Below, one piece after another: positions 18,514 to 45,661 of a DNA stretch of 64,000 nt. The notes beneath the pieces are model-generated. The model was not told the origin of the DNA. It made no database searches and was given only the letters and a program-made list of their open reading frames with translations. Origin of the DNA: Haloarchaeobius iranensis (GTDB taxonomy: Archaea > Halobacteriota > Halobacteria > Halobacteriales > Natrialbaceae); contig NZ_FNIA01000004.1 in the NCBI RefSeq assembly GCF_900103505.1, positions 1-64,000 of the forward strand, in the 5' to 3' direction. Both the position numbers and the translations under genes were made by a program. Numbering within the stretch: the stretch's first letter is position 1; every line of letters starts with the position of its first letter.

Positions 18514-20394
18514 ATGCAAGACGGACAGCTGTTGCCGTTCGCCGGGTGGGGGCTCGCCGGACTCCCCGTGGTGGGGACGTTCCTGCAGGCAGCGTTCGCG
18601 CTCGCCGGCGTGGAGGCGCGCACACTCCCGGTCGTCGGTGGCGTCGTCGACGCGTTCATCTCGCTGCAGGTGTTCAAAGAGGCGGCCATCCAGTTCAAGG
18701 CGAGCACGGCGGTCGTGCTGGTCCTCTTCGTGCTCATCGCCGCCGCGTGGGTGGGACAGGGTGTCGCCATGGGCTTGCTGCGGAACCGCGACGTGACCTT
18801 CGCCTGCGCCGGGCTCGTCTCCGTGCTCTTTCTCGTTCTCTTCTTCGGGGTCTACTCGTCGCTGTTCGGCAGCGGCATCGGCGTCGCACAGCTCGCGCTG
18901 TTCTTCGCCGTCCCGTTCGTCGCCAGTGCGGGCGCGCTGGGCGGTGCCTGGCTCCGCGACTGGACGGTCGACCTCGAGTCGGCGGCGGCCGAGGACCTCG
19001 CCGAAGCGGCGGACCTCGTCGACCGGAAGCGAGAGACGTTCGAGTCCGAGTACCGCCGGACGATGGGCGACGAGACCCTCGACGCCCTCGCGGACCTCGC
19101 CCCGAACGCCGTCAGCGAGGCCCGGGCCGCTGTGGACCGCGAGCGCGAGGCCTACGACGAACTCGCATCGAAAGTTGAGAGCGTGCGGTCGTCCGTCACG
19201 GACGCCAGCGAGGGGCGGCGGCGGGCCGCGGAGCTGCTCGACAGCGCGAAGCGACGCGACCCGGAGGGCGCGGTCGACCGCGTCCAGGCCGACCTCGCCG
19301 ACGGCGTCGACGCGGCGGTCGAACGCGGCGACGTGGACCTGACGGTGCGCTCGCGCTACGGCCGGACCTACGAGGTCGTCAACCTCCGGAGCACGTTCCG
19401 CGAGGTCAGGCTCCCGCCGAGCAACGAGCCGACCCACGTCGGGGAGGTCGACCGGACCGTCCGGCGGCTGCTCGACCGCGACGACGTCGACCTCGCGACG
19501 GTCGCCGATGTCCTCGACGAGATACGGGTCCACCAGGAGCGCATCGAGCGCCACGTCGCCGACACCGAGGAGTCCTTCGACGAGGCTCACGATGCCGCGG
19601 AAGGCGATGTCGAGCGGGCCCGCGACGAGCTGGAACGGCTCGAGGGCGCGGTTCGCGAGCGCGTCGAGTCGAAGCTGGTCGAGGGGCACGACCCGGGCGT
19701 CGATAGCGTCCACAGCGTCGAGACACAGCTCCGCGAGGCTCGCGAAGCGCTCCACGACTGTCGCTTCGACGAGGCAGAGCGGCTCGTCGAAGACGCGCGG
19801 CGCACCGCCGACGGCCTGCTGACCACGGTGCAGTTCTTCGGCAGCCTCGCGGGTGCGCTCGACCACGGACAGGACCGCGTGAGCCTCCCCGGCGAGGTCG
19901 ACCCCGAGTTCGCCCGCGACCTCGCGCCGGCCTTCGAGAGCGAGTACGGCGTCGAGTACCGCGTCGCGGACGGCCACATCAGCGTCAGCAACCGCGGCGA
20001 CCCGGCCTCAGTGGAGTCGACGAGGGACCGGGACCGTTCGACGGGCCGTTCGTCGTCCGCCGCCGGCAGTGCCAGCGGCGGCCGTGAGGAGTACGTCGAC
20101 CCGGAGGAGGTCGTGGACGAGGTGTTGCTCCTGTTCGACGAGCTGTCGGCCGTCGCCGAGGCCGGGTCCGACACCGTCCACCTGGAGACCGGCGACCTCC
20201 CCGACTACGCGGTCCAGTCCGAGGCGCTGGCGGCCATCGAACGGTTCTCCAGCCGACAGAACGACCTCGTGGAGTCGTTCGACGTGCCGGCTGGTGCGCC
20301 GCCCGGCATCGTGGACGTTCGCTTCACCGACCGAACCGACGCCCCCGACGCGCTGGATACGCTCTACGACCGCTTCAAGGAGCAGTACGTGTAG
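18514..20394 (+). CDS. Polytopic membrane protein with long cytoplasmic coiled coil (tubulin cluster)
   Basis: 626 residues. The N-terminal part is hydrophobic: an amphipathic stretch at 8-32, then membrane helices at about 65-88, 95-115 and 121-146. It is followed by about 350 residues of charged helix with coiled-coil character (about 150-500; e.g. RARDELERLEGAVRERVESK), a Ser/Gly/Arg linker (about 505-530) and a small C-terminal domain. No catalytic motif is seen. I do not recognise the family. Domain layout is shared with the protein at 26873, suggesting related scaffold roles. It is the first gene of the 27-kb locus and probably a separate transcript, since a strong hairpin follows it. 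Confidence 0.75.
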   Translation: MQDGQLLPFAGWGLAGLPVVGTFLQAAFALAGVEARTLPVVGGVVDAFISLQVFKEAAIQFKASTAVVLVLFVLIAAAWVGQGVAMGLLRNRDVTFACAGLVSVLFLVLFFGVYSSLFGSGIGVAQLALFFAVPFVASAGALGGAWLRDWTVDLESAAAEDLAEAADLVDRKRETFESEYRRTMGDETLDALADLAPNAVSEARAAVDREREAYDELASKVESVRSSVTDASEGRRRAAELLDSAKRRDPEGAVDRVQADLADGVDAAVERGDVDLTVRSRYGRTYEVVNLRSTFREVRLPPSNEPTHVGEVDRTVRRLLDRDDVDLATVADVLDEIRVHQERIERHVADTEESFDEAHDAAEGDVERARDELERLEGAVRERVESKLVEGHDPGVDSVHSVETQLREAREALHDCRFDEAERLVEDARRTADGLLTTVQFFGSLAGALDHGQDRVSLPGEVDPEFARDLAPAFESEYGVEYRVADGHISVSNRGDPASVESTRDRDRSTGRSSSAAGSASGGREEYVDPEEVVDEVLLLFDELSAVAEAGSDTVHLETGDLPDYAVQSEALAAIERFSSRQNDLVESFDVPAGAPPGIVDVRFTDRTDAPDALDTLYDRFKEQYV

Positions 20395-20419
20395 GCGGGG
20401 ACGGAAGTCTCGGCTCCCG

Positions 20420-20453
20420 GTACGAGTGCCCCCAGCACATCGGGGGCGCGTAC
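20420..20453 (+). terminator. Strong stem-loop between coiled-coil gene and first tubulin
   Basis: GCCCCC/GGGGGC stem with 8-nt loop, extended by outer GTAC/GTAC pairing, starts 26 bp after the stop codon at 20394. The rest of the 230-bp gap up to 20624 has only a weak TATA-like CATATCTC (20579-20587). The stem-loop may be an RNA 3' end or a processing signal. Confidence 0.35.
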
Positions 20454-20624
20454 TACTCCACTCTCCCGTGGTATCCGCCATCCTCCCGAGGGTCCGTGAC
20501 TCCGCGCAATGGGGGTCCCTTCCGGCGCCGATCACGAACCGTCTCGGTCGGGGTCGTTCTCTCGGCGGGCCAGTACGTTCATATCTCAGGCTACACCACT
20601 TCCCCACAGTGACCGTCGGCTATC

Positions 20625-22232
20625 ATGTCTGAAACATGTAAAATATGTGTCTCGCCGCGTGGGGAGTGGGACCACGACACGCTGGAGAGCCACATCGCAC
20701 ACGAACATCGAGACGAACCGAAGTCGGTCGAGCAGGTGTATCCTGACCTCTACGAACCGATCTTCGTCGAGGAACGGTACTGGGAGGACGAGGTCGAGGA
20801 GCCGGACGACGAACCGTTCCCGGGCGGCGGCAACGGCAACGGGGCGACCGCCAACGGGGAGACCGATTTCGGGCTCTCCTCGGTCGGGAAGAAGTGGTAC
20901 GTCATCGGCGTCGGTGGGGCCGGGAACCACATCGTCGACGCCATCCTGCTGCGCCGGAACACGCTCGCCGACGAGAACGAGGACCGGGTCCGTATCTGGC
21001 AGGGTGGGCTCGCGGGGGCGGGCGTGCTCAACACGAACGTCGCCGAGATCGAGGAGACGTACTACGCACAGGAGGAGAAGGGCTACAACCGCCACGACAT
21101 CGTGGCGAACTGCATCATCGGGCAGGGCGTCCACAACTACGCCGGGGCCGGCTATCGCTGGGACCACGGCCGGGACTTCGTGCTCGCGGACTTCGAGGAC
21201 GGCGGCAACCCGTTCCAGGAGCGCTGGGACATGAACCCGGTCGAGCTGCGCGACTCCCAGGCAGTCATGTTCGTCCACAGCGTGACGAAGGGGACCGGTT
21301 GTGGGTCGACCCCGGTCATCGCGGAGAAGCTCCGCGAGGCGGTGCTGGACGACGACAAGGTCGTCGGGAAACCGATATTCTCGTCGGTCGTCATCCCGAG
21401 CGAGTACGCCGACCGCTCCGGGCGGGCGATGGTCAACGGCGTCATCGGGATGGCCCGGACGGCGGCGAACGTCGACGCGATCATCCCGTTCGACAACCGC
21501 AAGCTGCGAGAGGCGACCCAGGACATCGAGCCGCGCATCCACGGCGTCGAGCGGTACAACCCGCCGGAGTTCGCCGACCTGAACAAGCCGCTGGTGGCGT
21601 TCCTGGAGGCGTTCACGATGTCCTCCATCCCGCAGGTGGTCGACCAGGACACCGACCTCTCCGTGCGCGGTGAGGTGTTCGACCCGGCGGACAGCTTCCG
21701 CCCGGTGCAGGACAAGTACCCGTTCGACCCGGACCGGGCGTACAACCCGGCGGTCGTGCTCGCGCCGGTGCTCGGGAAGATACACGCGAACTCGTTCGAC
21801 CGGTCGAAGCTCCAGATGCTCGCCCGGAAGGCGCTGTTCCAGAACAAGCTCGCCGACTTCGACCCGACGACGGCCTGGGGTGGGACGTTCCTCATCTACG
21901 GGCCCGAGGAGAAGATGTCCAAGGTCGCGCCGCTCATCAACGACGGCGTGCTGACCGAGGTGCTCGCCAGCCCGGACTTCCTCGACCGGGACACCGTCGC
22001 CGGCGTTGAGACGGTGGACATCCACACGCACCAGCTTGTGACGCCGTACCTCGACGACATCTACCTCTGGGGGACGCTCTGGAACCCCGAGATGCCGTCG
22101 CTGGAGGAGATGTACGAGCACGCGCTGACGATGAAGCAGGACGGCAACAGCCAGCTCTCGGCCGGCGTGCGCGAGGTGTGGGACCAGGTGGAACCGCTGT
22201 TCGACTGCCTCGGCCGGAAGAACATGCCCTGA
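20625..22232 (+). CDS. Tubulin/FtsZ-superfamily GTPase 1, with N-terminal zinc finger
   Basis: 535 residues. Residues 5-29 look like a C2H2 finger (CKIC, then HIAHEH), followed by an acidic/Gly-rich linker to about 85. GTPase elements are T1 VIGVGGAGNHIVDA (93-106), T2 VLNTNVAEIE (134-143), T4 tubulin signature TKGTGCGST (221-229) and a T6-like VDAIIPFDNRKL (283-294). The first signature Gly is Lys222. The C-terminal half is long (about 220 residues) and matches no canonical FtsZ tail. It belongs with tubulin-like families annotated in archaea and bacteria outside FtsZ1, FtsZ2 and CetZ. It should bind GTP and polymerise. The next gene starts 10 bp later. Confidence 0.85.
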   Translation: MSETCKICVSPRGEWDHDTLESHIAHEHRDEPKSVEQVYPDLYEPIFVEERYWEDEVEEPDDEPFPGGGNGNGATANGETDFGLSSVGKKWYVIGVGGAGNHIVDAILLRRNTLADENEDRVRIWQGGLAGAGVLNTNVAEIEETYYAQEEKGYNRHDIVANCIIGQGVHNYAGAGYRWDHGRDFVLADFEDGGNPFQERWDMNPVELRDSQAVMFVHSVTKGTGCGSTPVIAEKLREAVLDDDKVVGKPIFSSVVIPSEYADRSGRAMVNGVIGMARTAANVDAIIPFDNRKLREATQDIEPRIHGVERYNPPEFADLNKPLVAFLEAFTMSSIPQVVDQDTDLSVRGEVFDPADSFRPVQDKYPFDPDRAYNPAVVLAPVLGKIHANSFDRSKLQMLARKALFQNKLADFDPTTAWGGTFLIYGPEEKMSKVAPLINDGVLTEVLASPDFLDRDTVAGVETVDIHTHQLVTPYLDDIYLWGTLWNPEMPSLEEMYEHALTMKQDGNSQLSAGVREVWDQVEPLFDCLGRKNMP

Positions 22233-22241: not shown

Positions 22242-23834
22242 ATGGGTGCAGCAATCGCGGCCGACCTGACGCTACAGCAGGCCGCCCAGACCGGTCACTC
22301 GACGCTGGTCCTCGCAGCGGCAGCCGTCGGCGCGCTCGTCGTCGGCCTCGGTGCCGGTGCCCTGGGCACGCACCTGCTCGGCGGCTCCGACGGCTCCGGA
22401 GGTTCGAGCGCGGCCGTCGCACGGTTCGCCCAGCCGCTCTCGACCGAGCCGGACGCCGACGCCGTCCACGACGAACTGCAGACGCTGACGGCGGCGACCG
22501 ACACCATCCTGCGGGCGGCGAGCGACACGCCCGCCGTGGACCGCCGTGACTCCCGCTCGGACGCGCTGCAGTCGCTGGCGCGGGCGCTCTCGGGTGGCGA
22601 CCTCCACCTCACCGAACGGCCACCCGACACTGCGGGGGCTGGCACCGGCGGACAGGAGCGGGCCGGGGGCCTGGCGGTCGACGCCGTCGCCACCGAGCTG
22701 CGCTCTGTGTGGTCGCCGGGCTCCCGGGCCGCCCGGGACCTGCTCGACACGCTGTCGGACCCGAACGCGCGGCGCGGCGACGCCTACGACGCGCTCGACC
22801 GGGCCGTCGAGGACCTCGAGCGCGCCCACCGTGTGACGGAGGCGGCAGAGCGTGCCGGGAGCGTCCGAGGACCGGACCAGGCCCGGACGTTCGACGACAG
22901 GCTGCACGAGCTTGACGGGCCGCTGGCGTCGTCGCTCCGGCCGGTCTCCGCTCGGCTGGCCGACGCACTGACCGAACTCGACGCGGAGCGCTCCAGCCAG
23001 TCGGCCAACGCGACGGCCCTCGCCGACATCTGCGACCGGGCGGAGCGCGACACGACGGTCTCGCTCCGCGGCAGTGACACGGCTGCCCGTGGCGACGACC
23101 TCGTCGAACAGCTCGAACGCGGCGACCTGTCGTTCAGCACGGGCGAGACGGATGTCGCCGCCGTCGCGGCCACGGTCGAGTCACGGCAGTCGCCCGACAG
23201 CGCGGCGGCGGCCCGGCTGCTCGACGAACTGAAGTCGGCCGGAACGACCGACGAGGACAGCCTCCGGGCGGCGCTTCGGACCGCCACGGGGGCACTCGAC
23301 GAGCACGCCGCGACGAGACAGCTCGTCGCGGGCGTCGACCGGGAGTCGGTGACCGAGCTCGCGAACGCGGTGAAGCGTGACCTCGACCCGGGCGACCCCG
23401 TCGAATCGGCGTTGCTGGAGCGTGTCGCCGACCTGCAGGGCTCGCTCGACCGCGCAGGACAGTCGGACCTCGTCCGACCGTACGTCGTCAGGCACGAGCT
23501 CTCGTTCTACCGCGACACGCTGCTCCCGACGCTCGACTCGGCCCGCTCGGATGCGACGGCCGCGGAGACGCCGTCGGGGCTGGTGGCGCGGGTCGGCGAC
23601 CGCATCGAGGAGGTCGAGGAGTACTACGAGCTGCGCGACGACCACAACCACACCATCCCCAGGCACTTCGTCTCGGTGGCGCGGTCGCTCCACGACGAGG
23701 GCGAGCGGCTCTCGACGCGGGACCCCGAGCGCGCCAGGGGGACGCTGGCGGCGGCGCTCGAACTGCTCGATGCGACCGAGCAGCTGTACGAACGCAACCA
23801 GTTCTCCATCATGTTGCGTCGGCTCCGGGGGTAG
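22242..23834 (+). CDS. Membrane-anchored helical protein (tubulin cluster)
   Basis: 530 residues. A single membrane helix (about 21-46, Ala/Val/Gly-rich) is followed by a Gly/Ser linker and about 470 residues of acidic helix. No enzyme motif is visible. The tail from about 440 (RIEEVEEYYELRDD onward, with LAAALELLDATEQLYERNQF) looks like a TPR- or four-helix-bundle-type segment. It is probably a cytoplasm-facing scaffold for tubulin 1, with which it forms a two-gene transcript ending in a pyrimidine-rich tract. I do not recognise the family. Confidence 0.7.
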   Translation: MGAAIAADLTLQQAAQTGHSTLVLAAAAVGALVVGLGAGALGTHLLGGSDGSGGSSAAVARFAQPLSTEPDADAVHDELQTLTAATDTILRAASDTPAVDRRDSRSDALQSLARALSGGDLHLTERPPDTAGAGTGGQERAGGLAVDAVATELRSVWSPGSRAARDLLDTLSDPNARRGDAYDALDRAVEDLERAHRVTEAAERAGSVRGPDQARTFDDRLHELDGPLASSLRPVSARLADALTELDAERSSQSANATALADICDRAERDTTVSLRGSDTAARGDDLVEQLERGDLSFSTGETDVAAVAATVESRQSPDSAAAARLLDELKSAGTTDEDSLRAALRTATGALDEHAATRQLVAGVDRESVTELANAVKRDLDPGDPVESALLERVADLQGSLDRAGQSDLVRPYVVRHELSFYRDTLLPTLDSARSDATAAETPSGLVARVGDRIEEVEEYYELRDDHNHTIPRHFVSVARSLHDEGERLSTRDPERARGTLAAALELLDATEQLYERNQFSIMLRRLRG

Positions 23835-23992: not shown

Positions 23993-25501
23993 ATGACGTA
24001 TCTGTTCGTGGGGGCCGGACAGGCAGGGAGTGCTATCGTCGACGCCGTGTTCGAGTACACGTCCGACTCGACGCTCGGACTGTTCGGCGGCAACGACATC
24101 ACAGCGCTCGCCGAACCCATGGTGTTCAATTCGACAATTCGAGACCTGCAGAACCTCTCGAACGTGGCGGAGTCGGACCAGTTCGGCATCGCCGAACAGC
24201 ACGGTATCGTCGACGGGACCACCGCCGGGTTCGAGGAGCGTGTCACCGGCGGTTTCGGCCGCGACCCGAAGGAGGCCGACGAGGTGATGAGCGAACACGC
24301 GGACGAGGTCGTCGACCTCCTCCGTCGCCGGTTCGGCTCGCGGGACGGACTCGCGACCGACGGCGGCGGCCCCGGCTGGGACGAGGCGGACCGGACCGAC
24401 GACTACGACGACGGCTGGGCGGAGGAGCCGGCGGATACCCGCGGCGATGGCTGGGAGGAGGAGCCGGCCGACAGCCGCGACGACGGCTGGGGCGACGAGC
24501 CGGCCGACGAGTGGGCCGAGGACACCGGCGGTGGCTGGGAGGACGGCGAGGTCGACCGGGAGGTCGAGAACATCGAGGCCGAGATGAGCGGTGAGCCACG
24601 GGACGCCACGGAGAGCGAGGAGATACAGTTCGCGTTCGTCTGCCTCGGTCTCGGCGGCGGTACCGGTTGCGGCATCGCACCCCACATCGTCGACGCCATC
24701 GACGAGTACACGGACGGCCGGGCGAGCATCGTGGCGCTGGCCATCCTCCCGAACACGATGGGGCCGATGACGAGCGGCGGCGACGACGAGGACGGCGGTG
24801 CGGGCCGACAGGCCTGGAACGCCAGGTACGGACTCGACCGACTGGAGGACAAGGTCGACGGCATCGTGCTCGTCGACAACCAGCGCATCTCGTACCAGGC
24901 GGCGGCCGAGAGCCAGTTCGCGGAGTACAACGAGTACATCGCGGCGGGCATCTACGACCTCGTCGCCGGACCGGTCCTCTCGGGCATCGACCCGAGCGAC
25001 TACGCCGACATCGACACGCCCGACATCGACGTGCAGGACATCGTCACGTCGCTGTCGTTCGGCGTCGGGGGCAGCGACTCCAAGGCGGGCTACGCCGCGC
25101 TCGGGCGGGCGGCGACGATGACGCGCTCGCTCTCGGGCTATCTCGTCCCGTTCCTGGGGAAGAAGGCGATCGACAGCGCCGCTCTCGTCCGGCTCGCGAC
25201 GAGCAAGCAGTCCGTCTCGGACCTGGACACCGCCGACGCCCAGAAGGCGATCGGGCTCGTTCGTGCGCCGTCGGGCTATCTCGCCGGCGGGAGCAACCGC
25301 ATCGAGACCTCGACCATCCGCGAGTACCTCCAGGCACAGTGTGCGCTCCAGGAGGTGAACCTCGGCGTCGCGCTCAACGACCGCAACCTCGCGACGGTGA
25401 CGACGCTGCTGACCTACGAGCGCGAGGACATCTCCCGCATCGCGGAGATCGAGGAGAAGGCCGCGGAGTACGAGGAGCGAACCGAGGCGATGGTCCAGTG
25501 A
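23993..25501 (+). CDS. Tubulin/FtsZ-superfamily GTPase 2, with acidic Trp-repeat insert
   Basis: 502 residues. T1 is LFVGAGQAGSAIVDAV (4-19), a T2-like segment is VFNSTIRDLQ (44-53), the canonical signature is GLGGGTGCGIAP (219-230) and T6-like is VDGIVLVDNQRIS (288-300). Between T2 and T4 there is an unusual insertion (about 125-195), a low-complexity acidic run with seven Trp residues built on DDGWAEEPADTR-like units. The start at the very N-terminus leaves only three residues before the nucleotide-binding strand. The gene overlaps the next one by 4 bp. It is clearly diverged from tubulin 1 and tubulin 3, so the three are not recent duplicates. Confidence 0.85.
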   Translation: MTYLFVGAGQAGSAIVDAVFEYTSDSTLGLFGGNDITALAEPMVFNSTIRDLQNLSNVAESDQFGIAEQHGIVDGTTAGFEERVTGGFGRDPKEADEVMSEHADEVVDLLRRRFGSRDGLATDGGGPGWDEADRTDDYDDGWAEEPADTRGDGWEEEPADSRDDGWGDEPADEWAEDTGGGWEDGEVDREVENIEAEMSGEPRDATESEEIQFAFVCLGLGGGTGCGIAPHIVDAIDEYTDGRASIVALAILPNTMGPMTSGGDDEDGGAGRQAWNARYGLDRLEDKVDGIVLVDNQRISYQAAAESQFAEYNEYIAAGIYDLVAGPVLSGIDPSDYADIDTPDIDVQDIVTSLSFGVGGSDSKAGYAALGRAATMTRSLSGYLVPFLGKKAIDSAALVRLATSKQSVSDLDTADAQKAIGLVRAPSGYLAGGSNRIETSTIREYLQAQCALQEVNLGVALNDRNLATVTTLLTYEREDISRIAEIEEKAAEYEERTEAMVQ

Positions 25502-25770
25502 GGTCGCGTCGGTTCGCGGTCGTCGGGCTGGTGTTCGCGTGTCTGCTGACCCTCGCGGGGGTCGGAGGGACGGCCGCCGCGCAGGACGACGCGAGCGTCG
25601 CCGACGCCATCGACCGCACCGAACGCGTCGCCGAACTGGAGTCCCTCGCCGAGCAGTCGCTGCTCCAGTACCTCGGCGGTGGCGGCATCGGGCTCGGCCT
25701 CGGTATCGTCCTCGGCAGCGTGGTGGTGTACCGGATACAGAAGTCGCGGATCGACGAGACCTACGAATGA
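25498..25770 (+). CDS. Small signal-peptide membrane protein
   Basis: 90 residues from GTG 25498, which overlaps the stop of tubulin 2. A signal-like hydrophobic N-terminus (about 5-27, ending TAAAQDD), a short extracellular acidic stretch (about 28-56) and a C-terminal membrane helix (about 58-78, GGGGIGLGLGIVLGSVVVY) with a basic cytoplasmic end. Unknown family. It could be a membrane tether for the tubulin. The GTG start is inferred from the overlap and the good signal peptide. Confidence 0.65.
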   Translation: MRSRRFAVVGLVFACLLTLAGVGGTAAAQDDASVADAIDRTERVAELESLAEQSLLQYLGGGGIGLGLGIVLGSVVVYRIQKSRIDETYE

Positions 25771-26876
25771 ACGGACGAGCCCTCCGAACGACCCTCGTCG
25801 TGCTCTGTGCGGTCTGGCTCGTCGCCGCACCGTTCGCGGGTGGCGGGGTGGCCGCCCAGGCGGCAGCGACGGGCGACTCGGCCGACGTGGCCGTCTGCGA
25901 CTCGGTCGAGTCCAGCGGGACGGTCGCGGTTGCGACGGTCCCGGGCAGCGACGAGCCACTCCGGGACGACCGCGCGCTGTACGCGGGCACGAGGCTCACG
26001 ATACGCCTCTGTGACGCCGACGGCGTGGTCACGCCGTACGGGGAGAGCGGGGCCTGGTTCCTCGCAGCCTGGGACGGCTACGAGATACAGAACACGACCG
26101 ACTCGAGCGTCACCATCCGACTGACCGAGGGCTACGGGCAGCTCACGGTGGCGTCGCAGGTCCGGCCGACCGGGAAGGCCGAAACCGGGCCGACGGTCAC
26201 CGAACCCACGCCGAACGTCGTCCAGCCGGCGTTCGGTGATGGGACGCTGTTCGTCCCGACTGCAGACGCCGTCGGGACCTACGGCGAGCACGAGGCCAGC
26301 TACCGGACGGCGCTGAACGAGACGGCGGCGACCACCGACCGTCTCGAGTCGCTCTCGTCTGCCGTGAACGGTAGCGGCCTGACAGACACACGGGCGACGA
26401 ACGCGACGGAGACGCTCCGGGCGCTCGCCGCGGCGACGAACGCGACCGACCGGACCGGCGGCGAGTACCGCTCGTACCTGTTCCGGGTGGCCGCCGAGTC
26501 GCCGACGCCGGGGGTCGCCGTCGACGCCATCGACGCCTCCCGAGAGCGCGAGGATACGGTCGAGCAGGACGCCGCCGGCGCGGTCGAGAGCTACGAGTCG
26601 GCGCTCGACGCCCGGGCGAGCGACGCCCGCTCGACGGTCAAGACGAACCTCCTCGTGGGGCTGGTCGGCGGACTGCTGGTCGGAGTCGTCCTGGGCGGGG
26701 TCGTACCCTACGTGGCGGCGTCGAGCACCGAGGGCCGCATCCGGGTCGACTCCTCCGCGGAGTACAGCCGGAAGGCGCAGTGGCTCCCGGTCGGCGTCGG
26801 CGTCCTCGTCCTGCTGGCGACGGTCGGGCTGCTGGTTGCGACGGACGGGCTTTCGATACTTACGGTGATACTATGA
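25767..26876 (+). CDS. Secreted/membrane protein with extracellular domain and two membrane helices
   Basis: 369 residues. A Sec signal peptide (about 1-30), a beta-rich extracellular part (about 36-170) and a helical segment (about 172-290) carrying several N-glycosylation sequons (NTT, NET, NGS, NAT). These are followed by two membrane helices (about 294-316 and 340-358) joined by a cytoplasmic loop. Unknown family. The 4-bp ATGA overlaps on both sides show tight coupling with its neighbours. Confidence 0.7.
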   Translation: MNGRALRTTLVVLCAVWLVAAPFAGGGVAAQAAATGDSADVAVCDSVESSGTVAVATVPGSDEPLRDDRALYAGTRLTIRLCDADGVVTPYGESGAWFLAAWDGYEIQNTTDSSVTIRLTEGYGQLTVASQVRPTGKAETGPTVTEPTPNVVQPAFGDGTLFVPTADAVGTYGEHEASYRTALNETAATTDRLESLSSAVNGSGLTDTRATNATETLRALAAATNATDRTGGEYRSYLFRVAAESPTPGVAVDAIDASREREDTVEQDAAGAVESYESALDARASDARSTVKTNLLVGLVGGLLVGVVLGGVVPYVAASSTEGRIRVDSSAEYSRKAQWLPVGVGVLVLLATVGLLVATDGLSILTVIL

Positions 26877-33200: not shown

Positions 33201-33233
33201 CTGCGGGAACGGATGAAGCGGACGGTGTTCTGA
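30201..33233 (+). CDS. Large transmembrane protein with extracellular and cytoplasmic Ig-like domains
   Basis: 1010 residues. The signal peptide (1-29) is followed by an extracellular region of about 400 residues with many N-x-S/T sites and a Thr/Asn/Gln-rich stalk. Three membrane helices lie at about 430-455, 465-487 and 500-522. On the cytoplasmic side are three beta-sandwich segments of carboxypeptidase-regulatory type (about 535-610, 615-690 and 695-790; e.g. DGEPIPGARVTVEPDEGDTK), then about 220 residues of helix. The topology would link cytoplasmic tubulins to the outside. It starts 2 bp after tubulin 3. I do not recognise it as a named family. Confidence 0.75.
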   Translation: MSWGTRATALLALAVLVATVAGVGAAATAADGTTAAEASVSVERTGPETLDVTVEFENGTENLSTVTLAIAGADGTAEANVSETADGDWEAELGVTDLVSASETAPLGGATVEVSADNATLGEDTADLRYASLDGTAARFEDGAVHLTPVDVRGFATTAPVPVSVGDATVNASYDAEAGALVLDADALGGLDRASLFEDRQLRVAPDEGVTATPTSVNLRAAAEAASELVASGDGVAISNPLLSVLDAGTYHLELTTESPDGQFAGPVEPTDAGVELPRAALAANVTATLSVGDADGPRLLDSWTSRYASESVDVYVNGSRFETTVDDVTEVFVATGDDVTSLAVSTENGTYMTNGTLPVDRPVLLVAGNDTVSGHTVEGQFGAGTGQDEEQGQEGTASEAPATTNGQGATNTTNSSAGGIDIAGLQYNVLTILTLVGAPVLFGILVALLVHFLIGPTGVYPKTLRAGTFLIVAGGLLGVVVDIGLGAFLLQPPTYIDYWQPALVGWVFGAAACWVPAYGLATSGAGAGGGTTTTPDPVDVTVTLVDGNGHRIREGANVVAKPTRGTGSKTTKATESGKVDLSLLPGGWQLTAAVGTQQQTDRLEVEDGRQTGEQAQLAFPRPGVTVTITDKQDGEPIPGARVTVEPDEGDTKTDDTGRNGRAGVTLPYAASSATVHVDHPKYHAASNDRTLADDGPLELNVGLGRQTGRLSVTAEVDGVATEGLPVSIGPAGDDRYRVDERQGSRRTDERGRVRASDVFVGDYVVGLDVAGSQSDLFRTRSTEVAVREDEPTKVTVQASFEWTVPQATRDRIRRLRREVDGLSEQSGRDTAFPGYYGSVVDRLLDLVEGLPQYGHLFATGEHRPDDVADALLDAAEDGISRVNTAMTTKRNVDMFAACADMPSVDPRWDGDELTHETYFDYVDADVDSDLTGRIERTRARIDDERADLTEVEPTTEMWEHARELFQETRREREPLAKAARALLVAGLLDAVEHSFDRRELRERMKRTVF

Positions 33234-38293: not shown

Positions 38294-41140
38294 TCAGTCG
38301 GTCTGTTCGAACGGCGTCGAGAGGTGGACGGGCACGGACAGCTCCTCCTCCGGCTCGTCGTCCTCCCAGGTCGCCGTCCACCCCTCGAGATGCGACCGGG
38401 ACCACTCCTCCGGCGTGGCCGCGACCGGGCCATCGAGTGCGAGCCGGTCCGTCTCCCCGTCGCAGGTGACCAGCAGGTCGACCGCCAGCTCGCGGTCGCT
38501 CTCGGCGGGTTTCACGTCGACGAAGTGCTCGACCGTCTCGCCGGGCTGGAGCGACTGGACGGTCTCCTCGACGTAGATCATCTCGTTCAGTCGCTCGCCG
38601 GTGGCCGCGAGCTGGAGCTCCTGGATTGGCTCCTCGGAGACGTTCCGCAGGTTGCAGACGACCTTGCTGTAGGTGTCGGCGACGTGGGTCTCGCGACCGA
38701 CGCCGGGGTCGAGCCGGTTCGCGACGGCGGTCCCAGGCCCGGCGTCGCGTTCGACGGTCGCGAGCGACTGGAACCGCCTGTCACCGCCGTACTCGACGGT
38801 GAGTGGCACCACCGCGTCGGTGTCGGAGAGCTCCGTCTCGGGTGCCGGAACGCTGCCCGACCAGCGGACGGTCTCGCCGGGGGCGAGCCCCTCGCCGTGG
38901 GGGTCGATATCCCAGGCACCGACCCAGGTCACGTCGACCCCTTCGACGGAGAGGTAGTCGTCGGTGCGGTTCTCGACGGTGCCGCGGACACGGACCGTCG
39001 GCCCGCTCGCGTCCACGCTCGCCCGGACGACGAGTGGGCCGTCGCGAACGTCGACGTCCATCGCGCCGGTCTCCGCGAGGTGACCGCCGTCCGCCGTCGC
39101 GGCGACGGGGGGGAGCTGGCTCCGGCCACGGCGAGCGAGCGCGTGGGCCCGCTGATAGCGGCGTTCCTCGCCCCGGTCGAAGGACCCGAGCCGGAACTGC
39201 TCGCCGTCTGCCACGAGCGTGAGGTCGTCGGTCTGCCCCTCGGTGTCGACAGCGAGGTACTCCAGGAACGCCTCCGTCGCGGCCGGCTCGTCGTCGGCCA
39301 CGGCGCGACGGAGTGACACGGCCGGGGGAGCGCTGCCCCCCGGCGTGTCTCCCCGGCCCGCCTGCCGGCCGCCGCCGGGCTGTCTTGCCTGACCACCTCG
39401 CCCGCCGGCAGGCTGCCCGCGGTCCGCCCCCGTCGGAGCCTCGGCCCGCTGGTCGCGGCCACCGGGGGCAGCCCCCGCCGCGAAACTGTTGTCGAGAGTG
39501 AGGTCGTGCGTGTCCTCGACGCCGGCGCCGTCGAGCCGGACCCGGAGCACGTTCCCGTCGAGCCCGGCGGCGACGGCCCCCGGAAGGGCGACCGACAGCG
39601 TCCACGTCGCCCCCGGCGCGACGTCGACGGCGCGTTCGACCGGGCCGGCGTCTCCGACGCCCAGCAGGACGAGCGAGTCCGCGACCTTCGTCTCGGTCGG
39701 GTTCTCCACGGTCACGTCGACGAACAGGAACGACCCCTCGACCGTCGGCTCGACCGACACCGTCACCGAGCCGTCGGTCGCGCTCGTCGACGCGGTCGCG
39801 ACCGTCGCCCCGGCGTCGTCCACGACCGTCCGCTCGACGGACTCGCCAGGGGTGTACCGCTCTGTCACCTCGACACGGCTCGTCTCTCCCGGGGCGACCG
39901 CGCCCACGTGGAGGTCGTCCTCGCGGACCCGGAGCTCCTGGAGCACCTCGCCCTCGTTGTGGACGAACAGCGTCGCGTGGACCGTCGCGCCCTCGACGCG
40001 GTCGACGGTCAGCTCGGCCGCGACGGACTCCTCGGGCGGGTCCGGCCGGTCGATGGCTATCGACTCGCTCGCCAGCGCCACGCCGTCAGCGGAGACGCTG
40101 ACCTCGGCGGTCTCCCCGTCCTCGACGTCGGTCACTTCGAACTCCGCCGCCGTGCTACCGCCAGCCGGCAGGTCGACCGTCGTGCTCCGACGCGCCGTCG
40201 TCGCCCCCTCGACCGCGATTGTCACCGTCGTGCTCCCCGCCGTCTCGGCCTCGTTCGTCAGTTCGACGACGAGCGGCTCGCCCGGGCCGATCGCGTCGAC
40301 CGGGAGCGTCGCGGTCACCGCGTCCACGTCGGCGCTCCGGCGATGGACCGAGAGCGTGTCCTCGCGGTAGACGCAGACGAGGTCGCCGTTCCGGGCCGGG
40401 TACACCGACCCCGCCGGCAGGCCGTCGACGGACTCGTAGGTCCCGTCGGGCTGCACCGCGAGCAGGCCGTCTGCGGTCCGCACGAGCAGCGTCTCGTCGC
40501 CACGTGGCGTGACCTGTGTGGGACGTATCTCCGTGCGCCAGTCAACCGACCCGGACGTGGGGTCAACCCCCACGAGCTGGTCGGACTTCAGCGCGGCGAC
40601 GACCGTTCCACCGGTGCCGCCGACGCCCGTGAGTGCGCTGCCCAGGTCCGCGTCGAACACCTGCTCCCCCTCGGCGTCGACCCCGGTGACGAACGACCAC
40701 GCACCGAGCAGGAAGCGTCCGTCGGCGGCGACGAACGACACGTCACCGGCCACGTCAGCGTACGGTCTGTCCACCGTCCAGCGGCGGGAGCCGCTCTCGC
40801 CGTCCACGCCGACGAGGCTCCGTTCCGTGAGCACGCAGACGACGCCCTCGTCCGGGAGCGCTGCGACGCCCTCGACGCCCTCGGCCCCGAGGTCGAGCGA
40901 CCAGACGCGGGAGCCGCTTCCCCCCGGAGAGAGCGCGAGCAGCGCGTCGGCGGTCAGCACGTAGACGCGCTCGCCCAGCGCGACGTCGACCGGCTCGGCA
41001 TCGACAGGGAGCGTCGTCCGGTCGGTGCCCCGGACGTAGGTCAGGTCACCGTCGCCGACGAGGGCGACGTCGTCGACACCGCCGTCGCTGGCCGTGACCG
41101 ACGGCAGCTCGAACGCCGCGACTTCGGCGTAGCCGCTCAC
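38294..41140 (-). CDS. Cytoplasmic beta-propeller/Ig-like repeat protein (partner of AAA ATPase)
   Basis: 948 residues without a signal peptide or membrane helix. The N-terminal part (about 1-285) has PQQ-type propeller blades (VWSLDLGAEGVEGVAALPDE, RRWTVDRPYADVAG and others). Then come two or three CARDB/Ig-like segments (about 290-570), a Gly/Gln/Arg-rich flexible linker (about 575-630) and a further beta-rich half (about 630-948). It overlaps the upstream AAA ATPase by 4 bp, so the two are made together. A propeller plus Ig layout is typical of an adaptor that recruits substrate. The family is not one I can name. Confidence 0.72.
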   Translation of the reverse strand: MSGYAEVAAFELPSVTASDGGVDDVALVGDGDLTYVRGTDRTTLPVDAEPVDVALGERVYVLTADALLALSPGGSGSRVWSLDLGAEGVEGVAALPDEGVVCVLTERSLVGVDGESGSRRWTVDRPYADVAGDVSFVAADGRFLLGAWSFVTGVDAEGEQVFDADLGSALTGVGGTGGTVVAALKSDQLVGVDPTSGSVDWRTEIRPTQVTPRGDETLLVRTADGLLAVQPDGTYESVDGLPAGSVYPARNGDLVCVYREDTLSVHRRSADVDAVTATLPVDAIGPGEPLVVELTNEAETAGSTTVTIAVEGATTARRSTTVDLPAGGSTAAEFEVTDVEDGETAEVSVSADGVALASESIAIDRPDPPEESVAAELTVDRVEGATVHATLFVHNEGEVLQELRVREDDLHVGAVAPGETSRVEVTERYTPGESVERTVVDDAGATVATASTSATDGSVTVSVEPTVEGSFLFVDVTVENPTETKVADSLVLLGVGDAGPVERAVDVAPGATWTLSVALPGAVAAGLDGNVLRVRLDGAGVEDTHDLTLDNSFAAGAAPGGRDQRAEAPTGADRGQPAGGRGGQARQPGGGRQAGRGDTPGGSAPPAVSLRRAVADDEPAATEAFLEYLAVDTEGQTDDLTLVADGEQFRLGSFDRGEERRYQRAHALARRGRSQLPPVAATADGGHLAETGAMDVDVRDGPLVVRASVDASGPTVRVRGTVENRTDDYLSVEGVDVTWVGAWDIDPHGEGLAPGETVRWSGSVPAPETELSDTDAVVPLTVEYGGDRRFQSLATVERDAGPGTAVANRLDPGVGRETHVADTYSKVVCNLRNVSEEPIQELQLAATGERLNEMIYVEETVQSLQPGETVEHFVDVKPAESDRELAVDLLVTCDGETDRLALDGPVAATPEEWSRSHLEGWTATWEDDEPEEELSVPVHLSTPFEQTD

Positions 41141-42873
41141 ACTGCATCGCCTCCGGCGCCGTCGCCCGTCGCTCCGTCGCCCGCCGGTCCGTCAGCCGCC
41201 GCGTCGCCGGCACCGCCGTCCGGCGCGGCGTCACCGTTCTGGCCGCCCTCGCCCGCCGCACCGTCGTCCCCGACGGCGTCACCGCCGCCCGCACCGAGCA
41301 GGGATTCGAGCGCGCTCGGCTCGGTTCCGAGGCGCATCCCCAGCCGGTCGGCCTGTGCCTCGACGTAGCGCTGCATCTCCGGGTAGCCCTCCAGGTCGTC
41401 CGTCTTCTCGCGGACGCTGGCGACGTACTGCCGGACCGTCTTCGGCTCCGAGGCCGCGAGCTTCTCGAGCAGGTAGTCGGTGTCGGGGACGATGGGGTCG
41501 CCGTCGATGACGCTCTCGACCAGCTCGCGCTGGAACTCGCTGCCGAGGATGCGGTCGGCGACCTCGGCCGGCGTGTAGCCGACCGACGCCTCGCCGAGGC
41601 GCTCGTAGTCGATCTCGTTCGCGGTCGACAGCGAGTCGAGCTGCTTGCGCCAGACCTCCGCCATCACCGTCTCGTCCGGCTGCGGGATGAACTGCTGGAT
41701 GGGAAACCGCCGGGTCGCCGCCGGGTCGATGGTGAAGGGCATGTTCGTCGCGCCGATGACGAGCAGGTTGTCCTCGACGTCGTTCATCTCCTGGAGGAAC
41801 GCGTTCGTCAGCGAGCGCTCGTGGCGCTGGAGCGAGTCGTCGCCGCGGTCGGGGATGAGCGTCTCCACCTCGTCGAAGAAGAGCACGCAGAAACCCTCCT
41901 GTGCGATGCCGTGGGCCTTCTCGAACACCGCCGAGACGCGCTTCTCGGACTCGCCGGAGTACTTCGAGAGGATGTCCGAGCCACGTACCTCGAGGAACTT
42001 CACCGGCCCGTAGTTGTCCTCGATGCTCGTGTTGTACATCGCCTCGTGTGCGATGGCCTCCGAGACGAGCGTCTTCCCACAGCCCGGCGGCCCGTACAGC
42101 ATCATCGAGCTGCCCCGTGACGCGAACGCCTGCCCGTAGCGACGCTCGACCTCGTTCCGCGTCTCGGCGTCGAACAGCGCGAGCAGCATCCGGGCCGTCT
42201 GCTTGACCTCCGGCAGCCCGGCCACGTCCTCCTCGAAGGAGACCGTCGGCTTCTTCGGTTCGAGGTTCACCTCGACGGCCTCGTCCTCGGCGACCTGCTG
42301 GCCGCCACCGGGGCCGCCGCCGTGGGTCGGGCCACCCCCACCGCGCGACCGGCTCGACTCCGTCGCCTTCAGCTCGCGGAGTTCGCCGGCCCCGATGAAC
42401 TCGATGTCGGTGTCGGCGGTCACCCGGACCGTCGTGTAGCCGGCCGGCTCGACCGTCGCCGCGGTGAACGTCGCCAGGCTGTCCCCCTGCTTGACGACCT
42501 CCTCGAAGGGATGCAGGAGGTAGTTCGTCGAGCGCAGGAACGACTCCAGCTTCTCCGGGCCGTTGCCGCCGGCGTGTATCTTCACGGCGTCGCACTCGAC
42601 CACGTCGTGGACCGATGCGTTCGGGTCCACCCGGAAGTCCCGCGAGGAGTCGATGCCGCCGAACAGCTCGGCGACGTTCCGGTGCATCCGAACTTTGTTC
42701 CCGATGGTCTCGCCTGCGAGCGGGCCGTCGTCGACCGGCTTCACGAGGAAATGTGCCGACCGGTTCTTGTGGCGGATCTCCACCACGTCGCTCGCGTTCC
42801 CGAGCTTCGATTCGCCTATCTTTACGTGTGAGGTCGGCTGGTCCTGTCGAAGTATCGGCGTCAGATTAAGCAT
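41137..42873 (-). CDS. Cdc48-like AAA ATPase
   Basis: 578 residues with one AAA domain. Walker A GPPGCGKT (261-268), Walker B LFFDEVE (331-337), sensor 1 GATN (374-377) and Arg fingers in ATRRF (386-390) are intact, so it should be an active hexameric ATPase. The N-terminal part (about 1-165) is beta-rich, somewhat like the Cdc48 N-domain, then a Gly-rich linker (about 178-192). The C-terminal end (about 540-578) is Gly/Ala/Asp-rich and disordered. There is no MIT domain, so it is not a typical Vps4/CdvC. It sits between the propeller gene and two helical-protein genes in one operon, overlapping both neighbours. Confidence 0.88.
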   Translation of the reverse strand: MLNLTPILRQDQPTSHVKIGESKLGNASDVVEIRHKNRSAHFLVKPVDDGPLAGETIGNKVRMHRNVAELFGGIDSSRDFRVDPNASVHDVVECDAVKIHAGGNGPEKLESFLRSTNYLLHPFEEVVKQGDSLATFTAATVEPAGYTTVRVTADTDIEFIGAGELRELKATESSRSRGGGGPTHGGGPGGGQQVAEDEAVEVNLEPKKPTVSFEEDVAGLPEVKQTARMLLALFDAETRNEVERRYGQAFASRGSSMMLYGPPGCGKTLVSEAIAHEAMYNTSIEDNYGPVKFLEVRGSDILSKYSGESEKRVSAVFEKAHGIAQEGFCVLFFDEVETLIPDRGDDSLQRHERSLTNAFLQEMNDVEDNLLVIGATNMPFTIDPAATRRFPIQQFIPQPDETVMAEVWRKQLDSLSTANEIDYERLGEASVGYTPAEVADRILGSEFQRELVESVIDGDPIVPDTDYLLEKLAASEPKTVRQYVASVREKTDDLEGYPEMQRYVEAQADRLGMRLGTEPSALESLLGAGGGDAVGDDGAAGEGGQNGDAAPDGGAGDAAADGPAGDGATGDGAGGDAV

Positions 42874-43525
42874 TGTCTCCTCCGTTCAGTCGCCCGCCCG
42901 CCCACTCCGCGAAGGAGAGCGGCCGGGCACTCCGTCGGTCCGTTCGACGCCCGACGAACGCCGCGCCCGAGCTCGCCCGGACGAGCACGTCTCGCAGCGA
43001 CGCGAGCATCCGCGAGAGGCTCTCGCAGGCGGCCTGCGCGTCCGAAGCGTCCACCGCACGACTCCGGCGCGCCAGCGTCTCCGCCCGCGCCAGCAGGTCC
43101 TCGGTCACCACCCGCAGCACCGCGAGCGTCGGTCCCCAGTTCCGGGCTGGCGGGCCGCTGTGCGCGAGCGGGACGACCAGTTCGCCGGCGTGGCGCTCGA
43201 CCCGCCCTGCGTCGACGAGTGCGTCGACGAGTGCGTCGACGGCTTCATCCCTCGTCGACGCCGGGTCGGCGTAGCGCGCCTCGAGCACCCTCGTCAGCGC
43301 GTCGTCGAGGCCGTCGCCGGCCCGCCCCACCTGCGAGGGGAACGGCGCAGCGGCGACGAACGCCTCGCCCAACTCGGCCAGCGCGTCCGTCGCCTCGTCC
43401 GCGGTCCGGTACACCGACACGTCGTCGTAGGTCGTGGCCCCCAGCAACGTCTCCATCCGCTCGTCCACCCGTCTGAGCGTCCCGAAGAACGATTCAGCTC
43501 GGAGCACGGTCGACGTGGTCGACAC
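42866..43525 (-). CDS. Small helical protein of the AAA/tubulin locus
   Basis: 219 residues, almost all helix: FFGTLRRVDERMETLLGATT, ALTRVLEARYADPASTRDEA and a long Ala/Arg helix near 150-190. The middle (about 85-120, DALVDALVDAGRVERHAGEL) could be a winged-helix-like element. No motif of known function. It overlaps the AAA gene by 8 bp, so translation is likely coupled. It may be a substrate adaptor. Confidence 0.65.
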   Translation of the reverse strand: MSTTSTVLRAESFFGTLRRVDERMETLLGATTYDDVSVYRTADEATDALAELGEAFVAAAPFPSQVGRAGDGLDDALTRVLEARYADPASTRDEAVDALVDALVDAGRVERHAGELVVPLAHSGPPARNWGPTLAVLRVVTEDLLARAETLARRSRAVDASDAQAACESLSRMLASLRDVLVRASSGAAFVGRRTDRRSARPLSFAEWAGGRLNGGDNA

Positions 43526-43537
43526 GAGTCGTCCCCC

Positions 43538-44578: not shown

Positions 44579-44599
44579 TGTCTGAATCCTGACTGCTGG

Positions 44600-45661
44600 T
44601 TACGTGTCGACGCCCCCGAACTCCGCCTCGGCGACGACCGCTGCGTAGCGCTCCTCGACGGCCTCCCGGACGTACCGGTTGACCGACGGGTCGTTGCTCA
44701 CCTGCATCTCCTCGACGTGCTCGCTCGCGGCCTCCTCGAACTCCGTCGGCGACGCCGGCAGCACGTCGCGTTCGGACTTCACGTCGGTCAGCACCCGTCG
44801 TGCCTCCCCCTCGACGTAGGCGTCGAACTCGTCCCGCATCACCACCATCTCCCGACCCACCTCGAGGTCGAGTCGGTCGGCGAGTGCGTCCTGCGTCGCC
44901 TCGACGATCTCGTCCTGCATCCCGTGGGCCTGCGAGAGCACGTCGAACCGGGCCTCTATCTCGGAGCGGACGACGCCCGGGAACTCCGCCGTGGGCACGA
45001 GGTACTGCGAGTCCTCGAACTGTGCCTCGACCTCGTCCTCGACCTCGCTCGCGACGTACCGCGCGAACTCGTCGAGCGCGCTCTTGACGAGGTACTCGCC
45101 GTCGAGGTCCACGATGAACCCCTCCTGTTCGAGGTAGCGGATGACGTCGGTCGTCGCCGCCACGTCGATGACCTTCTCCAGGTCGCTGTGGCTTATCTTC
45201 CCCCGCGCTGCCTTGCGTTCGAGCTGGGAGTCCAGCCCGACGTTGCCCGCGTGCTCCTTGAGCCGCGGCCCGATGGTGTAGTAGTCGCGCTCCCCTGCCG
45301 TGATACGCGCCACGAGGTCGCGGGACTCCAGCTCGGTGGCGAAGTAGTCCACGTCGTCTATCGCCAGGTCGAACCGCGACCGGAGCGTCTCGGACGTGAT
45401 GACGATTCGTTGACTGAACACGCTCGTCAGTTCGTTGGTGACGGCGTCGGAACTCCCCACGCTGAACGTGTCGACGTAGTAGACGCCGTCGCGGATCTGC
45501 TCCAGGTCGGAGAACTCGTCCTCCGTCAGGTCTCGGAGTGCCTTCTTGAGGTCCGACGTGGACAGGTTGCTCGCGTTGAGCGTGCCGGTGTCCGCGCTCT
45601 CGTATCGCTTCTGGATCTCCCCCCGCTTGTCCGTCACGTAGAGAAACCCGTAGTTCGACAT
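44600..45661 (-). CDS. Tandem winged-helix-like protein (first gene of minus-strand operon)
   Basis: 353 residues. After an N-terminal alpha-beta stretch there are two helix-turn-helix-like segments: about 85-130 (VITSETLRSRFDLAIDDVDY, then SRDLVARI) and about 153-195 (GKISHSDLEKVIDVAATTDV, then GFIVDLDGEYLVKSA). A mostly helical C-terminal half follows. Tandem winged helices in a row recall eukaryotic ESCRT-II and UFL1 in fold layout only. It is not an obvious DNA-binding repressor, as basic residues are few. An alternative start at ATG 45718 would add 19 residues and lies just after a TATA-like box. Confidence 0.68.
   Translation of the reverse strand: MSNYGFLYVTDKRGEIQKRYESADTGTLNASNLSTSDLKKALRDLTEDEFSDLEQIRDGVYYVDTFSVGSSDAVTNELTSVFSQRIVITSETLRSRFDLAIDDVDYFATELESRDLVARITAGERDYYTIGPRLKEHAGNVGLDSQLERKAARGKISHSDLEKVIDVAATTDVIRYLEQEGFIVDLDGEYLVKSALDEFARYVASEVEDEVEAQFEDSQYLVPTAEFPGVVRSEIEARFDVLSQAHGMQDEIVEATQDALADRLDLEVGREMVVMRDEFDAYVEGEARRVLTDVKSERDVLPASPTEFEEAASEHVEEMQVSNDPSVNRYVREAVEERYAAVVAEAEFGGVDT

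What the first reader, a model, noticed from the sequence alone, without database searches (positions are those of the whole stretch)
18514..45661. A ~27-kb locus pairing three tubulin-like GTPases with membrane coiled coils, a Cdc48-like AAA ATPase and an ESCRT-III-like protein
Seen: three GTPase genes with tubulin T1/T4 motifs, at least six membrane-anchored helical/Ig proteins between them, and a convergent five-gene operon with an AAA ATPase. Established: extra FtsZ/tubulin families beyond FtsZ and CetZ have been described computationally in archaea and bacteria and proposed to act in membrane remodelling. Inference: this set is one machine, with a GTP-driven polymer coupled to the envelope and remodelled by the ATPase. 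I do not know a described function for this combination.
Basis: partly seen in the sequence, partly recalled or inferred. Interest (0 to 1): 0.9.

Follow-up and report, generated by a model that had tools for sequence, protein, structure and literature searches.

The report
Mobile three-tubulin membrane machine in haloarchaea
A block of sixteen genes, found in about one in ten salt-loving archaea and apparently gained and lost as a unit, encodes three different tubulin-like proteins, a set of membrane-anchored partners and a protein-remodelling motor, and most likely forms a cell-membrane reshaping machine that earlier computer studies had seen only in part.

Summary
Window 18508-45661 holds two convergent operons of 16 conserved genes: 11 on + (three tubulin/FtsZ-superfamily GTPases among membrane proteins) and five soluble ones on - (winged-helix/coiled-coil proteins, a Cdc48-like AAA ATPase, a beta-propeller/Ig protein). 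Among 391 haloarchaeal genomes, 38 have the minus operon; the same 38, and no others, have close TubA. TubB and TubC are in those 38 plus two. Gene order is nearly invariant. In one genus the operons lie apart, yet both are kept. Component distances correlate with each other (mean 0.83-0.94), not with host FtsZ (0.38-0.58). Two Haloarchaeobius relatives without the locus have its flanking genes 2.7-3.7 kb apart. It is not wholly new: mBio 2024 described a 'Halo_adaptin ESCRT system' with this ATPase, propeller/Ig and winged-helix proteins and one CetZ-like protein, apparently this locus. New here: three co-inherited GTPases, the full gene set, mobility as a unit, and modular variants in which half-loci sit beside an FtsZl1 cassette. 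'ESCRT-III-like' was not supported by profile or fold searches. Likely role: a GTP-polymer and AAA machine remodelling the membrane, separate from division (inferred).

The parts
18508..20394 (+). g01: N-terminal transmembrane helices, then a long cytoplasmic coiled coil (628 aa; in-frame ATG at 18514)
   Evidence: homologue in every locus that has TubA
20625..22232 (+). TubA: tubulin/FtsZ-superfamily GTPase with an N-terminal C2H2 zinc-finger-like motif (C5, C8, H23, H28) and a conserved C-terminal tail
   Evidence: PF00091 9e-14; T1/T4/T6/T7 conserved; C and H residues invariant in 20 homologues
22242..23834 (+). g03: helical protein, N-terminal transmembrane helix here but in only 13 of 40 homologues
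23993..25501 (+). TubB: tubulin/FtsZ-superfamily GTPase (GGGTGCG T4 loop; acidic repeat insert seen in this genus)
   Evidence: PF00091 9e-13; nearest PDB sequences are CetZ structures
25498..25770 (+). g05: small protein with two hydrophobic segments
25767..26876 (+). g06: membrane protein, three hydrophobic segments in 41/41 homologues
26873..28999 (+). g07: two N-terminal transmembrane helices, then a large cytoplasmic coiled coil (41/41 homologues)
28999..30198 (+). TubC: tubulin/FtsZ-superfamily GTPase (GGGTGNG T4 loop, T7 D-x-x-D)
   Evidence: PF00091 6e-11; PDB 4b46, a CetZ, E 1e-12
30201..33233 (+). g09: signal peptide, ectodomain, transmembrane helices, CarboxypepD_reg/Ig-like and helical domains
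   Evidence: PF13620 1.2e-9
33237..34307 (+). g10: signal peptide, helical ectodomain, C-terminal transmembrane helix (two hydrophobic segments in 41/41)
34291..37083 (+). g11: signal peptide, Ig-like ectodomains, coiled coil, C-terminal transmembrane helix
   Evidence: weak Ig-like Pfam matches below their cut-offs
38294..41140 (-). m1: PQQ/WD40-like beta-propeller plus Ig-like repeats, soluble; present in every variant of the locus
   Evidence: PF13360 5.7e-10
41137..42873 (-). m2: single-domain Cdc48/Vps4-like AAA ATPase with an N-terminal domain distantly related to Cdc48-N
   Evidence: PF00004 2.2e-31; hhalign probability 93% to haloarchaeal Cdc48 N domains
42866..43525 (-). m3: helical protein; the AlphaFold model shows helices, a winged-helix-like segment and a long helical hairpin
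   Evidence: mean pLDDT 83; no PDB fold match
   Evidence: mean pLDDT 80; ESCRT-III/PspA relationship not supported
44600..45661 (-). m5: winged-helix plus helical protein, first gene of the minus operon
   Evidence: weak MarR and SelB winged-helix matches; conserved with the operon

Best explanation
One accessory 16-gene machine, gained and lost as a block, that remodels the cell membrane or envelope. Shown: two operons co-occur, co-diverge and travel together; three distinct GTPases keep all superfamily nucleotide and catalytic motifs; the plus operon supplies the membrane-anchored partners and the minus operon only soluble proteins, including a Cdc48-like AAA ATPase. Inferred: TubA, TubB and TubC form one mixed GTP-dependent polymer or three cooperating ones on the inner face of the membrane, tethered by the coiled-coil membrane proteins g01 and g07. 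Proteins with Ig and helical ectodomains (g06, g09, g10, g11) carry the assembly through the membrane to the S-layer or cargo. The propeller/Ig protein m1 is the adaptor, and the AAA ATPase with m3-m5 extracts or disassembles subunits so that the assembly can cycle. The likely outcome is vesicle, tubule or local envelope shaping, separate from division.
For: TubA and m4 occur in exactly the same 38 of 391 genomes; TubB and TubC in those 38 plus G042 and G048 (log10 P about -53 by genome, -17 by genus, genomes and genera treated as independent). Order 1-A-3-B-5-6-7-C-9-10-11 against m1-m5 is near-invariant. In genus g34 the operons are 78-257 kb apart or on different contigs, yet both are complete. 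Each component's distances correlate on average 0.83-0.94 with the others but 0.38-0.58 with FtsZ1; partial Mantel 0 of 5000. T1/T4/T6/T7 are kept in 40/40 of each GTPase. TM helices lie in plus-operon non-GTPase genes. The host has two FtsZ and three CetZ elsewhere. In two relatives without the locus, wH95 and cobA are 2.7-3.7 kb apart. Partial loci sit beside FtsZl1 genes, a family proposed for membrane remodelling (PMC2875224).
Against: No experiment shows polymers, membrane binding or an ATPase substrate. No ESCRT-III fold or sequence was detected in m3 or m4. Sub-modules exist without the AAA cassette (G042, G048, G031, G081), so the ATPase is not strictly required. Co-occurrence shows linkage, not the product of the machine.
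Confidence: 0.6

Rival explanations
1. Two unrelated systems lie side by side: a tubulin cluster and an AAA/winged-helix cluster that share a site.
For: Converging operons are transcribed separately; sub-modules exist; genus g34 has them apart.
Against: Exact co-occurrence in 38 of 391 genomes, including where they are unlinked, and strongly correlated divergence.
Confidence: 0.05
2. An anti-phage or inter-cell conflict system: mobile, patchy, with an AAA ATPase.
For: Patchy distribution and gain/loss as a block, presence on megaplasmids, presence/absence within one genus.
Against: In PADLOC only the generic AAA domain matches strongly (IetA, TRIP13), with two weak matches of coiled-coil proteins; no nuclease, toxin or effector domain was found by Pfam; 16 genes is unusually large.
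Confidence: 0.1
3. A plasmid or chromosome segregation apparatus like TubZ/RepX.
For: TubZ and RepX are among the PDB matches of TubC, and RepX of TubB; the locus is on plasmids in Halobacterium salinarum R1, Halobaculum and a Natrinema; TubA carries a zinc-finger-like motif and m3-m5 show winged-helix-like segments.
Against: Seven membrane or secreted proteins in the operon; it lies on large contigs up to 4.48 Mb in other genomes; several nearest PDB matches are CetZ.
Confidence: 0.08
4. A cell-shape, surface-structure or cell-contact apparatus (secretion or adhesion) rather than vesicle or tubule formation.
For: Large Ig-type ectodomains with signal peptides; relationship to the CetZ branch, whose founding member controls cell shape.
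Against: Sparse presence across families (16 of 86 genera) does not suggest a general shape determinant; no secretion channel component seen.
Confidence: 0.15

Closest known systems
Halo_adaptin ESCRT system (PMC10936438, mBio 2024; example ATPase WP_014555335.1; a Haloquadratum walsbyi CetZ-like protein is discussed)
   Same: Vps4-like ATPase with a Cdc48/VAT-type N domain and no MIT domain, WD40/PQQ + Ig 'adaptin-like' protein, winged-helix proteins upstream of the ATPase, further Ig and membrane proteins, CetZ-related protein; haloarchaeal; vesicle formation proposed. Genome G014, whose 3,148,033-bp contig and 47% GC fit my recollection of H. walsbyi C23, carries the complete 16-gene locus.
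   Different: The paper's main text names one CetZ-related protein and one membrane protein. Here there are three GTPase families and seven membrane proteins in one conserved set. Its ESCRT-III assignment rests on weak PspA similarity that I could not reproduce. Its supplements were not readable here, so identity of loci was not checked by accession.
FtsZl1 (Tubulin_2, PF13809) membrane-remodelling operons (PMC2875224, 2010)
   Same: Tubulin-superfamily GTPases with membrane proteins, in cells that also have ordinary FtsZ; membrane remodelling proposed. FtsZl1 proteins sit beside half-versions of the present locus.
   Different: TubA, TubB and TubC score best with PF00091, and only TubB touches PF13809, below its cut-off. 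No vWA domain or protein kinase was found among the 16 genes.
CetZ (archaeal cell-shape tubulins)
   Same: Nearest solved structures for TubB and TubC are CetZ proteins; similar T7 and C-terminal blocks.
   Different: A, B and C form three clades (UFBoot 100 each) outside the CetZ clade (95) in a small tree.
Halo.Tub group (PMC9871819, 2023)
   Same: [quoted passage not shown] possibly members of this locus.
   Different: No accessions in the text I could read, so identity is unproven; the AAA operon is not mentioned in the passages I read.

Membership tests
Tubulin/FtsZ superfamily (TubA, TubB, TubC) | GTPase domain above the Pfam cut-off, with T1/T4 glycine loops, T6 Asn and T7 acidic pair | tested here: met
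   52.6, 49.3 and 43.4 bits against a cut-off of 33; motifs in 40/40 homologues each, T4 of TubA altered to TKGTGCG
FtsZ (division) | Above the NCBIfam ftsZ equivalog cut-off; groups with FtsZ | tested here: not met
   25-38 bits against 295; separate clades; host has its own two FtsZ
CetZ | Branches inside the CetZ clade | tested here: not met
   A+B+C form a clade of their own (82) next to CetZ (95); limited sampling of CetZ
FtsZl1 / Tubulin_2 | PF13809 above cut-off and a ~1000-aa protein with coiled coil | tested here: not met
   TubB 20.4 bits against 27, others no match; lengths 399-535 aa
Cdc48/Vps4 group of AAA ATPases (m2) | AAA domain nearest to Cdc48/Vps4 | tested here: met
   PF00004 2e-31; Cdc48/p97 best in PDB; NCBIfam CDC48 and CdvC among the top families, below their cut-offs
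Cdc48/VAT N domain (m2 N-terminus) | Recognisable Cdc48 N-type domain | tested here: inconclusive
   hhalign 93% (E 2.8e-7, one comparison) over the second half of the domain; no Pfam CDC48_N hit at the locus; PDB profile search negative
Vps4 proper | MIT domain | tested here: not met
   No MIT match in Pfam at E<=1; agrees with PMC10936438
ESCRT-III / PspA (m3, m4) | Snf7/PspA sequence or fold | tested here: inconclusive
   No Pfam match, no PDB profile match, no Foldseek hit at E<=0.001, PspA profile comparison not significant. Long helices match poorly in such searches, so absence is not proof
Halo_adaptin locus type | VAT-N-type single AAA + PQQ/Ig protein + winged-helix proteins + CetZ-like GTPase in haloarchaea | tested here: met
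   against PMC10936438; accession-level identity not testable here

The most novel reading that the evidence does not exclude
A mobile three-tubulin machine: three distinct, catalytically intact tubulin-family GTPases, never found all together outside one 16-gene set, build a mixed or layered polymer on the membrane. The set has exchangeable power cassettes, either the Cdc48-like AAA/winged-helix operon or an FtsZl1 operon, connected by the propeller/Ig adaptor m1. This would be a fourth functional class of archaeal tubulin machinery besides FtsZ, CetZ and FtsZl1.
Probability: 0.35. Interest if true: 0.88.

Novelty: new variant of a known kind. Interest (0 to 1): 0.72.

Why it matters
Multi-component tubulin machines tied to a Cdc48-family ATPase and membrane coiled coils are usually thought of as eukaryotic. 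Here is such a set in cultured archaea, including a laboratory species (Halobacterium salinarum R1, plasmid PHS2). It appears dispensable, since it is absent from about 90% of haloarchaea, and it is gained or lost as a block, which makes it genetically testable. It would show whether several tubulins can specialise within one prokaryotic machine, and would give earlier separate predictions (Halo_adaptin, Halo.Tub, FtsZl1) a common frame.

Tried and rejected
(1) The name search in genome contigs with a single protein found only Haloarchaeobius sp. FL176, so organism names for most genomes are missing. (2) ESCRT-III identity of m4 and m3: two AlphaFold models and two Foldseek searches gave nothing significant; profile comparison of m4 with PspA gave E 0.014 over 25 columns, no better than other coiled coils. 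(3) m3 and m4 share a winged-helix-then-'NW'-then-hairpin layout, but the profile comparison is weak (E 0.0037 one way, 1.4e-4 the other, probability under 10%), so a paralogy claim was dropped. (4) PDB profile search of the AAA N domain alone was negative. (5) A GvpG match of g07 (E 0.011) and PADLOC matches of the AAA domain were set aside as generic or chance. (6) Outside Halobacteria: m5 was found in 3 of 197 genomes of the phylum, all of them Halobacteria already known to carry the locus. (7) VNG6260G, called cetZ5 in Hbt. salinarum NRC-1 (PMC7439475), may be one of these GTPases, but I could not map it.
Full report
OBSERVATION. The window is a haloarchaeal contig of the genus Haloarchaeobius: GC about 70% with strong third-position bias, TubC 99% identical to Haloarchaeobius sp. 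FL176. Gene calling gives a + strand run from 18508 to 37083 and a - strand run from 45661 down to 38294. The three GTPases score 52.6, 49.3 and 43.4 bits against the PF00091 cut-off of 33. The AAA ATPase is unmistakable and its nearest PDB sequences are the D2 domain of Cdc48/p97. Hydrophobic segments occur in the plus-operon non-GTPase genes and in none of the window's minus-operon genes.

WHAT BELONGS TO IT. I searched 391 Halobacteria genomes. The minus-operon protein m4 is in 38. Close TubA is in the same 38, with two remote relatives at 36% identity in G031 and G081. TubB and TubC are in the same 38 plus G042 and G048. The chance of m4 and TubA coinciding exactly is about 10^-53 by genome, or 10^-17 by genus for 16 of 86 genera; both figures treat the units as independent. 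I fetched the loci and built profiles for each gene. The order g01-TubA-g03-TubB-g05-g06-g07-TubC-g09-g10-g11 converging on m1-m2-m3-m4-m5 is preserved in almost all; a few apparent swaps or splits involve overlapping or broken frames. G248 and G162 are cut by contig ends. In one genus (G017, G061, G098) the operons are apart, 78 to 257 kb or on different contigs, yet both are complete. The small HTH gene at 18120, the HTH + DICT pair at 37125-38287, and the flanking cox and cobA genes occur only within the genus and are not part of the unit.

ONE EVOLUTIONARY UNIT. Over 28 genomes, pairwise protein distances of each component correlate on average 0.83-0.94 with the other components but only 0.38-0.58 with the host's FtsZ1. 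TubC against the AAA ATPase gives 0.94, or 0.93 after removing the FtsZ1 signal; partial Mantel tests gave 0 of 5000 permutations for three plus/minus pairs. Two genomes of the same genus lack the locus, and there wH95 and cobA, which flank it in the window, are 3.7 kb (G233) and 2.7 kb (G328) apart instead of 27.4 kb. This looks like gain or loss of a block with these ends. The locus is on plasmids in Halobacterium salinarum R1 (PHS2), three Halobaculum species and a Natrinema, and elsewhere on contigs of up to 4.48 Mb. H. salinarum R1 has all 16 genes, OE_RS12075 to OE_RS12000, two of them annotated as 'cell division protein FtsZ' (assigned by order, orientation and size, only TubC by sequence).

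THE THREE GTPASES. Each is a separate clade (UFBoot 100), together next to but outside the CetZ clade (82 for A+B+C, 95 for CetZ), far from FtsZ. T1, T4, T6-Asn and the T7 D-x-x-D pair are kept in 40/40 homologues of each; only the T4 of TubA departs from GGGTGxG. None looks degenerate, so all three are probably active GTPases (inference). TubA also has an N-terminal C2H2 motif whose four residues are invariant in 20 homologues. The nearest solved structures for B and C include CetZ entries 4b46, 4b45 and 3zid (the names CetZ1, CetZ2 and archaeal CetZ for these entries are from memory). The host has two FtsZ and three CetZ genes elsewhere, so the locus is additional to the division and shape systems.

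THE MINUS OPERON. m2 has one AAA domain and an N-terminal domain that matches haloarchaeal Cdc48 N domains at 93% hhalign probability over its second half. m1 is a PQQ-type propeller with Ig-like repeats. m3, m4 and m5 are helical with winged-helix-like segments (AlphaFold models of m3 and m4; weak SelB winged-helix match of m5). I could not confirm ESCRT-III: profile searches of the PDB, Foldseek and comparison with haloarchaeal PspA were all negative. Long helical hairpins are hard for these methods, so I call it inconclusive rather than excluded.

MODULAR VARIANTS. G042 and G048 carry TubB to g11 plus m1, without g01-TubA-g03 and without m2-m5. G031 and G081 carry g01-TubA-g03 plus m1 without the other GTPases and without m2-m5; G031 also has a g09-like gene. 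m1 is the only component in every variant. In three of these four (G042, G048, G081) an FtsZl1 protein (Tubulin_2, above cut-off) lies within about 15 kb. In G048 and G081 it lies upstream of m1 on the same strand with one or two related membrane genes between, that is, in the place of the AAA cassette. Frames over 800 aa with a Tubulin_2 match above the cut-off occur in 11 of 59 sampled genomes, so adjacency in three of four is not expected by chance. This links the present system to the FtsZl1 systems of PMC2875224 and suggests exchangeable cassettes around m1. It rests on four genomes.

KNOWN OR NEW. PMC10936438 (mBio 2024) describes the Halo_adaptin ESCRT system: Vps4-like ATPase with a VAT-type N domain, WD40/PQQ plus Ig proteins, winged-helix proteins, an ESCRT-III-like protein by weak PspA similarity, two more Ig proteins, a membrane protein and one CetZ-related protein; vesicle formation was proposed. 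The Haloquadratum walsbyi protein cited there, and the full locus in G014 (contig of 3,148,033 bases, 47% GC; identification as H. walsbyi C23 is from memory), make it almost certain that this is the same system. PMC9871819 (2023) noted 'Halo.Tub' copies in quasi-tandem with coiled-coil genes, possibly the same GTPases. In the texts I could read, neither joins three GTPases, seven membrane proteins and the AAA operon into one unit, nor reports the block mobility or the FtsZl1 variants. Hence a new variant of a known kind: the kind is described, the full make-up and its behaviour are not.

MECHANISM. Shown: composition, topology by hydrophobicity, intact GTPase motifs, co-inheritance. Inferred: GTP-dependent polymers of TubA-C tethered by g01 and g07; trans-membrane coupling through the Ig and helical ectodomain proteins; m1 as adaptor; AAA-driven turnover with m3-m5; output in vesicle, tubule or envelope shaping. 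One functional system: about 0.93. Membrane or envelope remodelling by GTP polymers: about 0.6. Vesicle formation in particular: about 0.3.

Noticed in passing
L033, L044, L051 (genomes G017, G061, G098), next to m5: In the one genus where the two operons are separated, two extra CetZ-type genes in tandem lie beside the AAA/winged-helix operon.
   Followed up: partly
L104 and L115 (G340 contig C2, 463,690 bases, the length of the Halobaculum halobium plasmid NZ_CP126159.1): One plasmid carries two copies of the locus; in one of them TubA and TubB are split into two frames, so that copy looks degraded.
   Followed up: no
window 23993-25501: TubB has an acidic repeat insert (WEEEPADSRDDGW-like, about residues 118-200) between T1 and T4 that is missing or shorter in other genera.
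   Followed up: no
G000 contig C52:26804-27205: The window's own genome also encodes an FtsZl1 (Tubulin_2) protein far from this locus, in an 807-aa frame.
   Followed up: no
window 37125-38287: An HTH (DUF7344) plus DICT-domain gene pair sits between the convergent operons in all four Haloarchaeobius loci and nowhere else; DICT relatives at about 33% identity lie near the sites without the locus in G233 and G328.
   Followed up: partly
window 41515-41612, minus strand: ARAGORN reports a 98-base tRNA-Cys inside the AAA gene; it lies in conserved coding sequence and is probably a false positive.
   Followed up: no
window 4779-6860: Predicted surface protein (693 aa, very acidic) built of at least five repeats of about 110 aa, with a threonine-rich stalk and C-terminal anchor.
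   Followed up: no
m3 and m4 (window 42866-44578): Both families have an invariant Asn-Trp at the start of their helical region after a winged-helix-like segment; they may be distant paralogues.
   Followed up: partly
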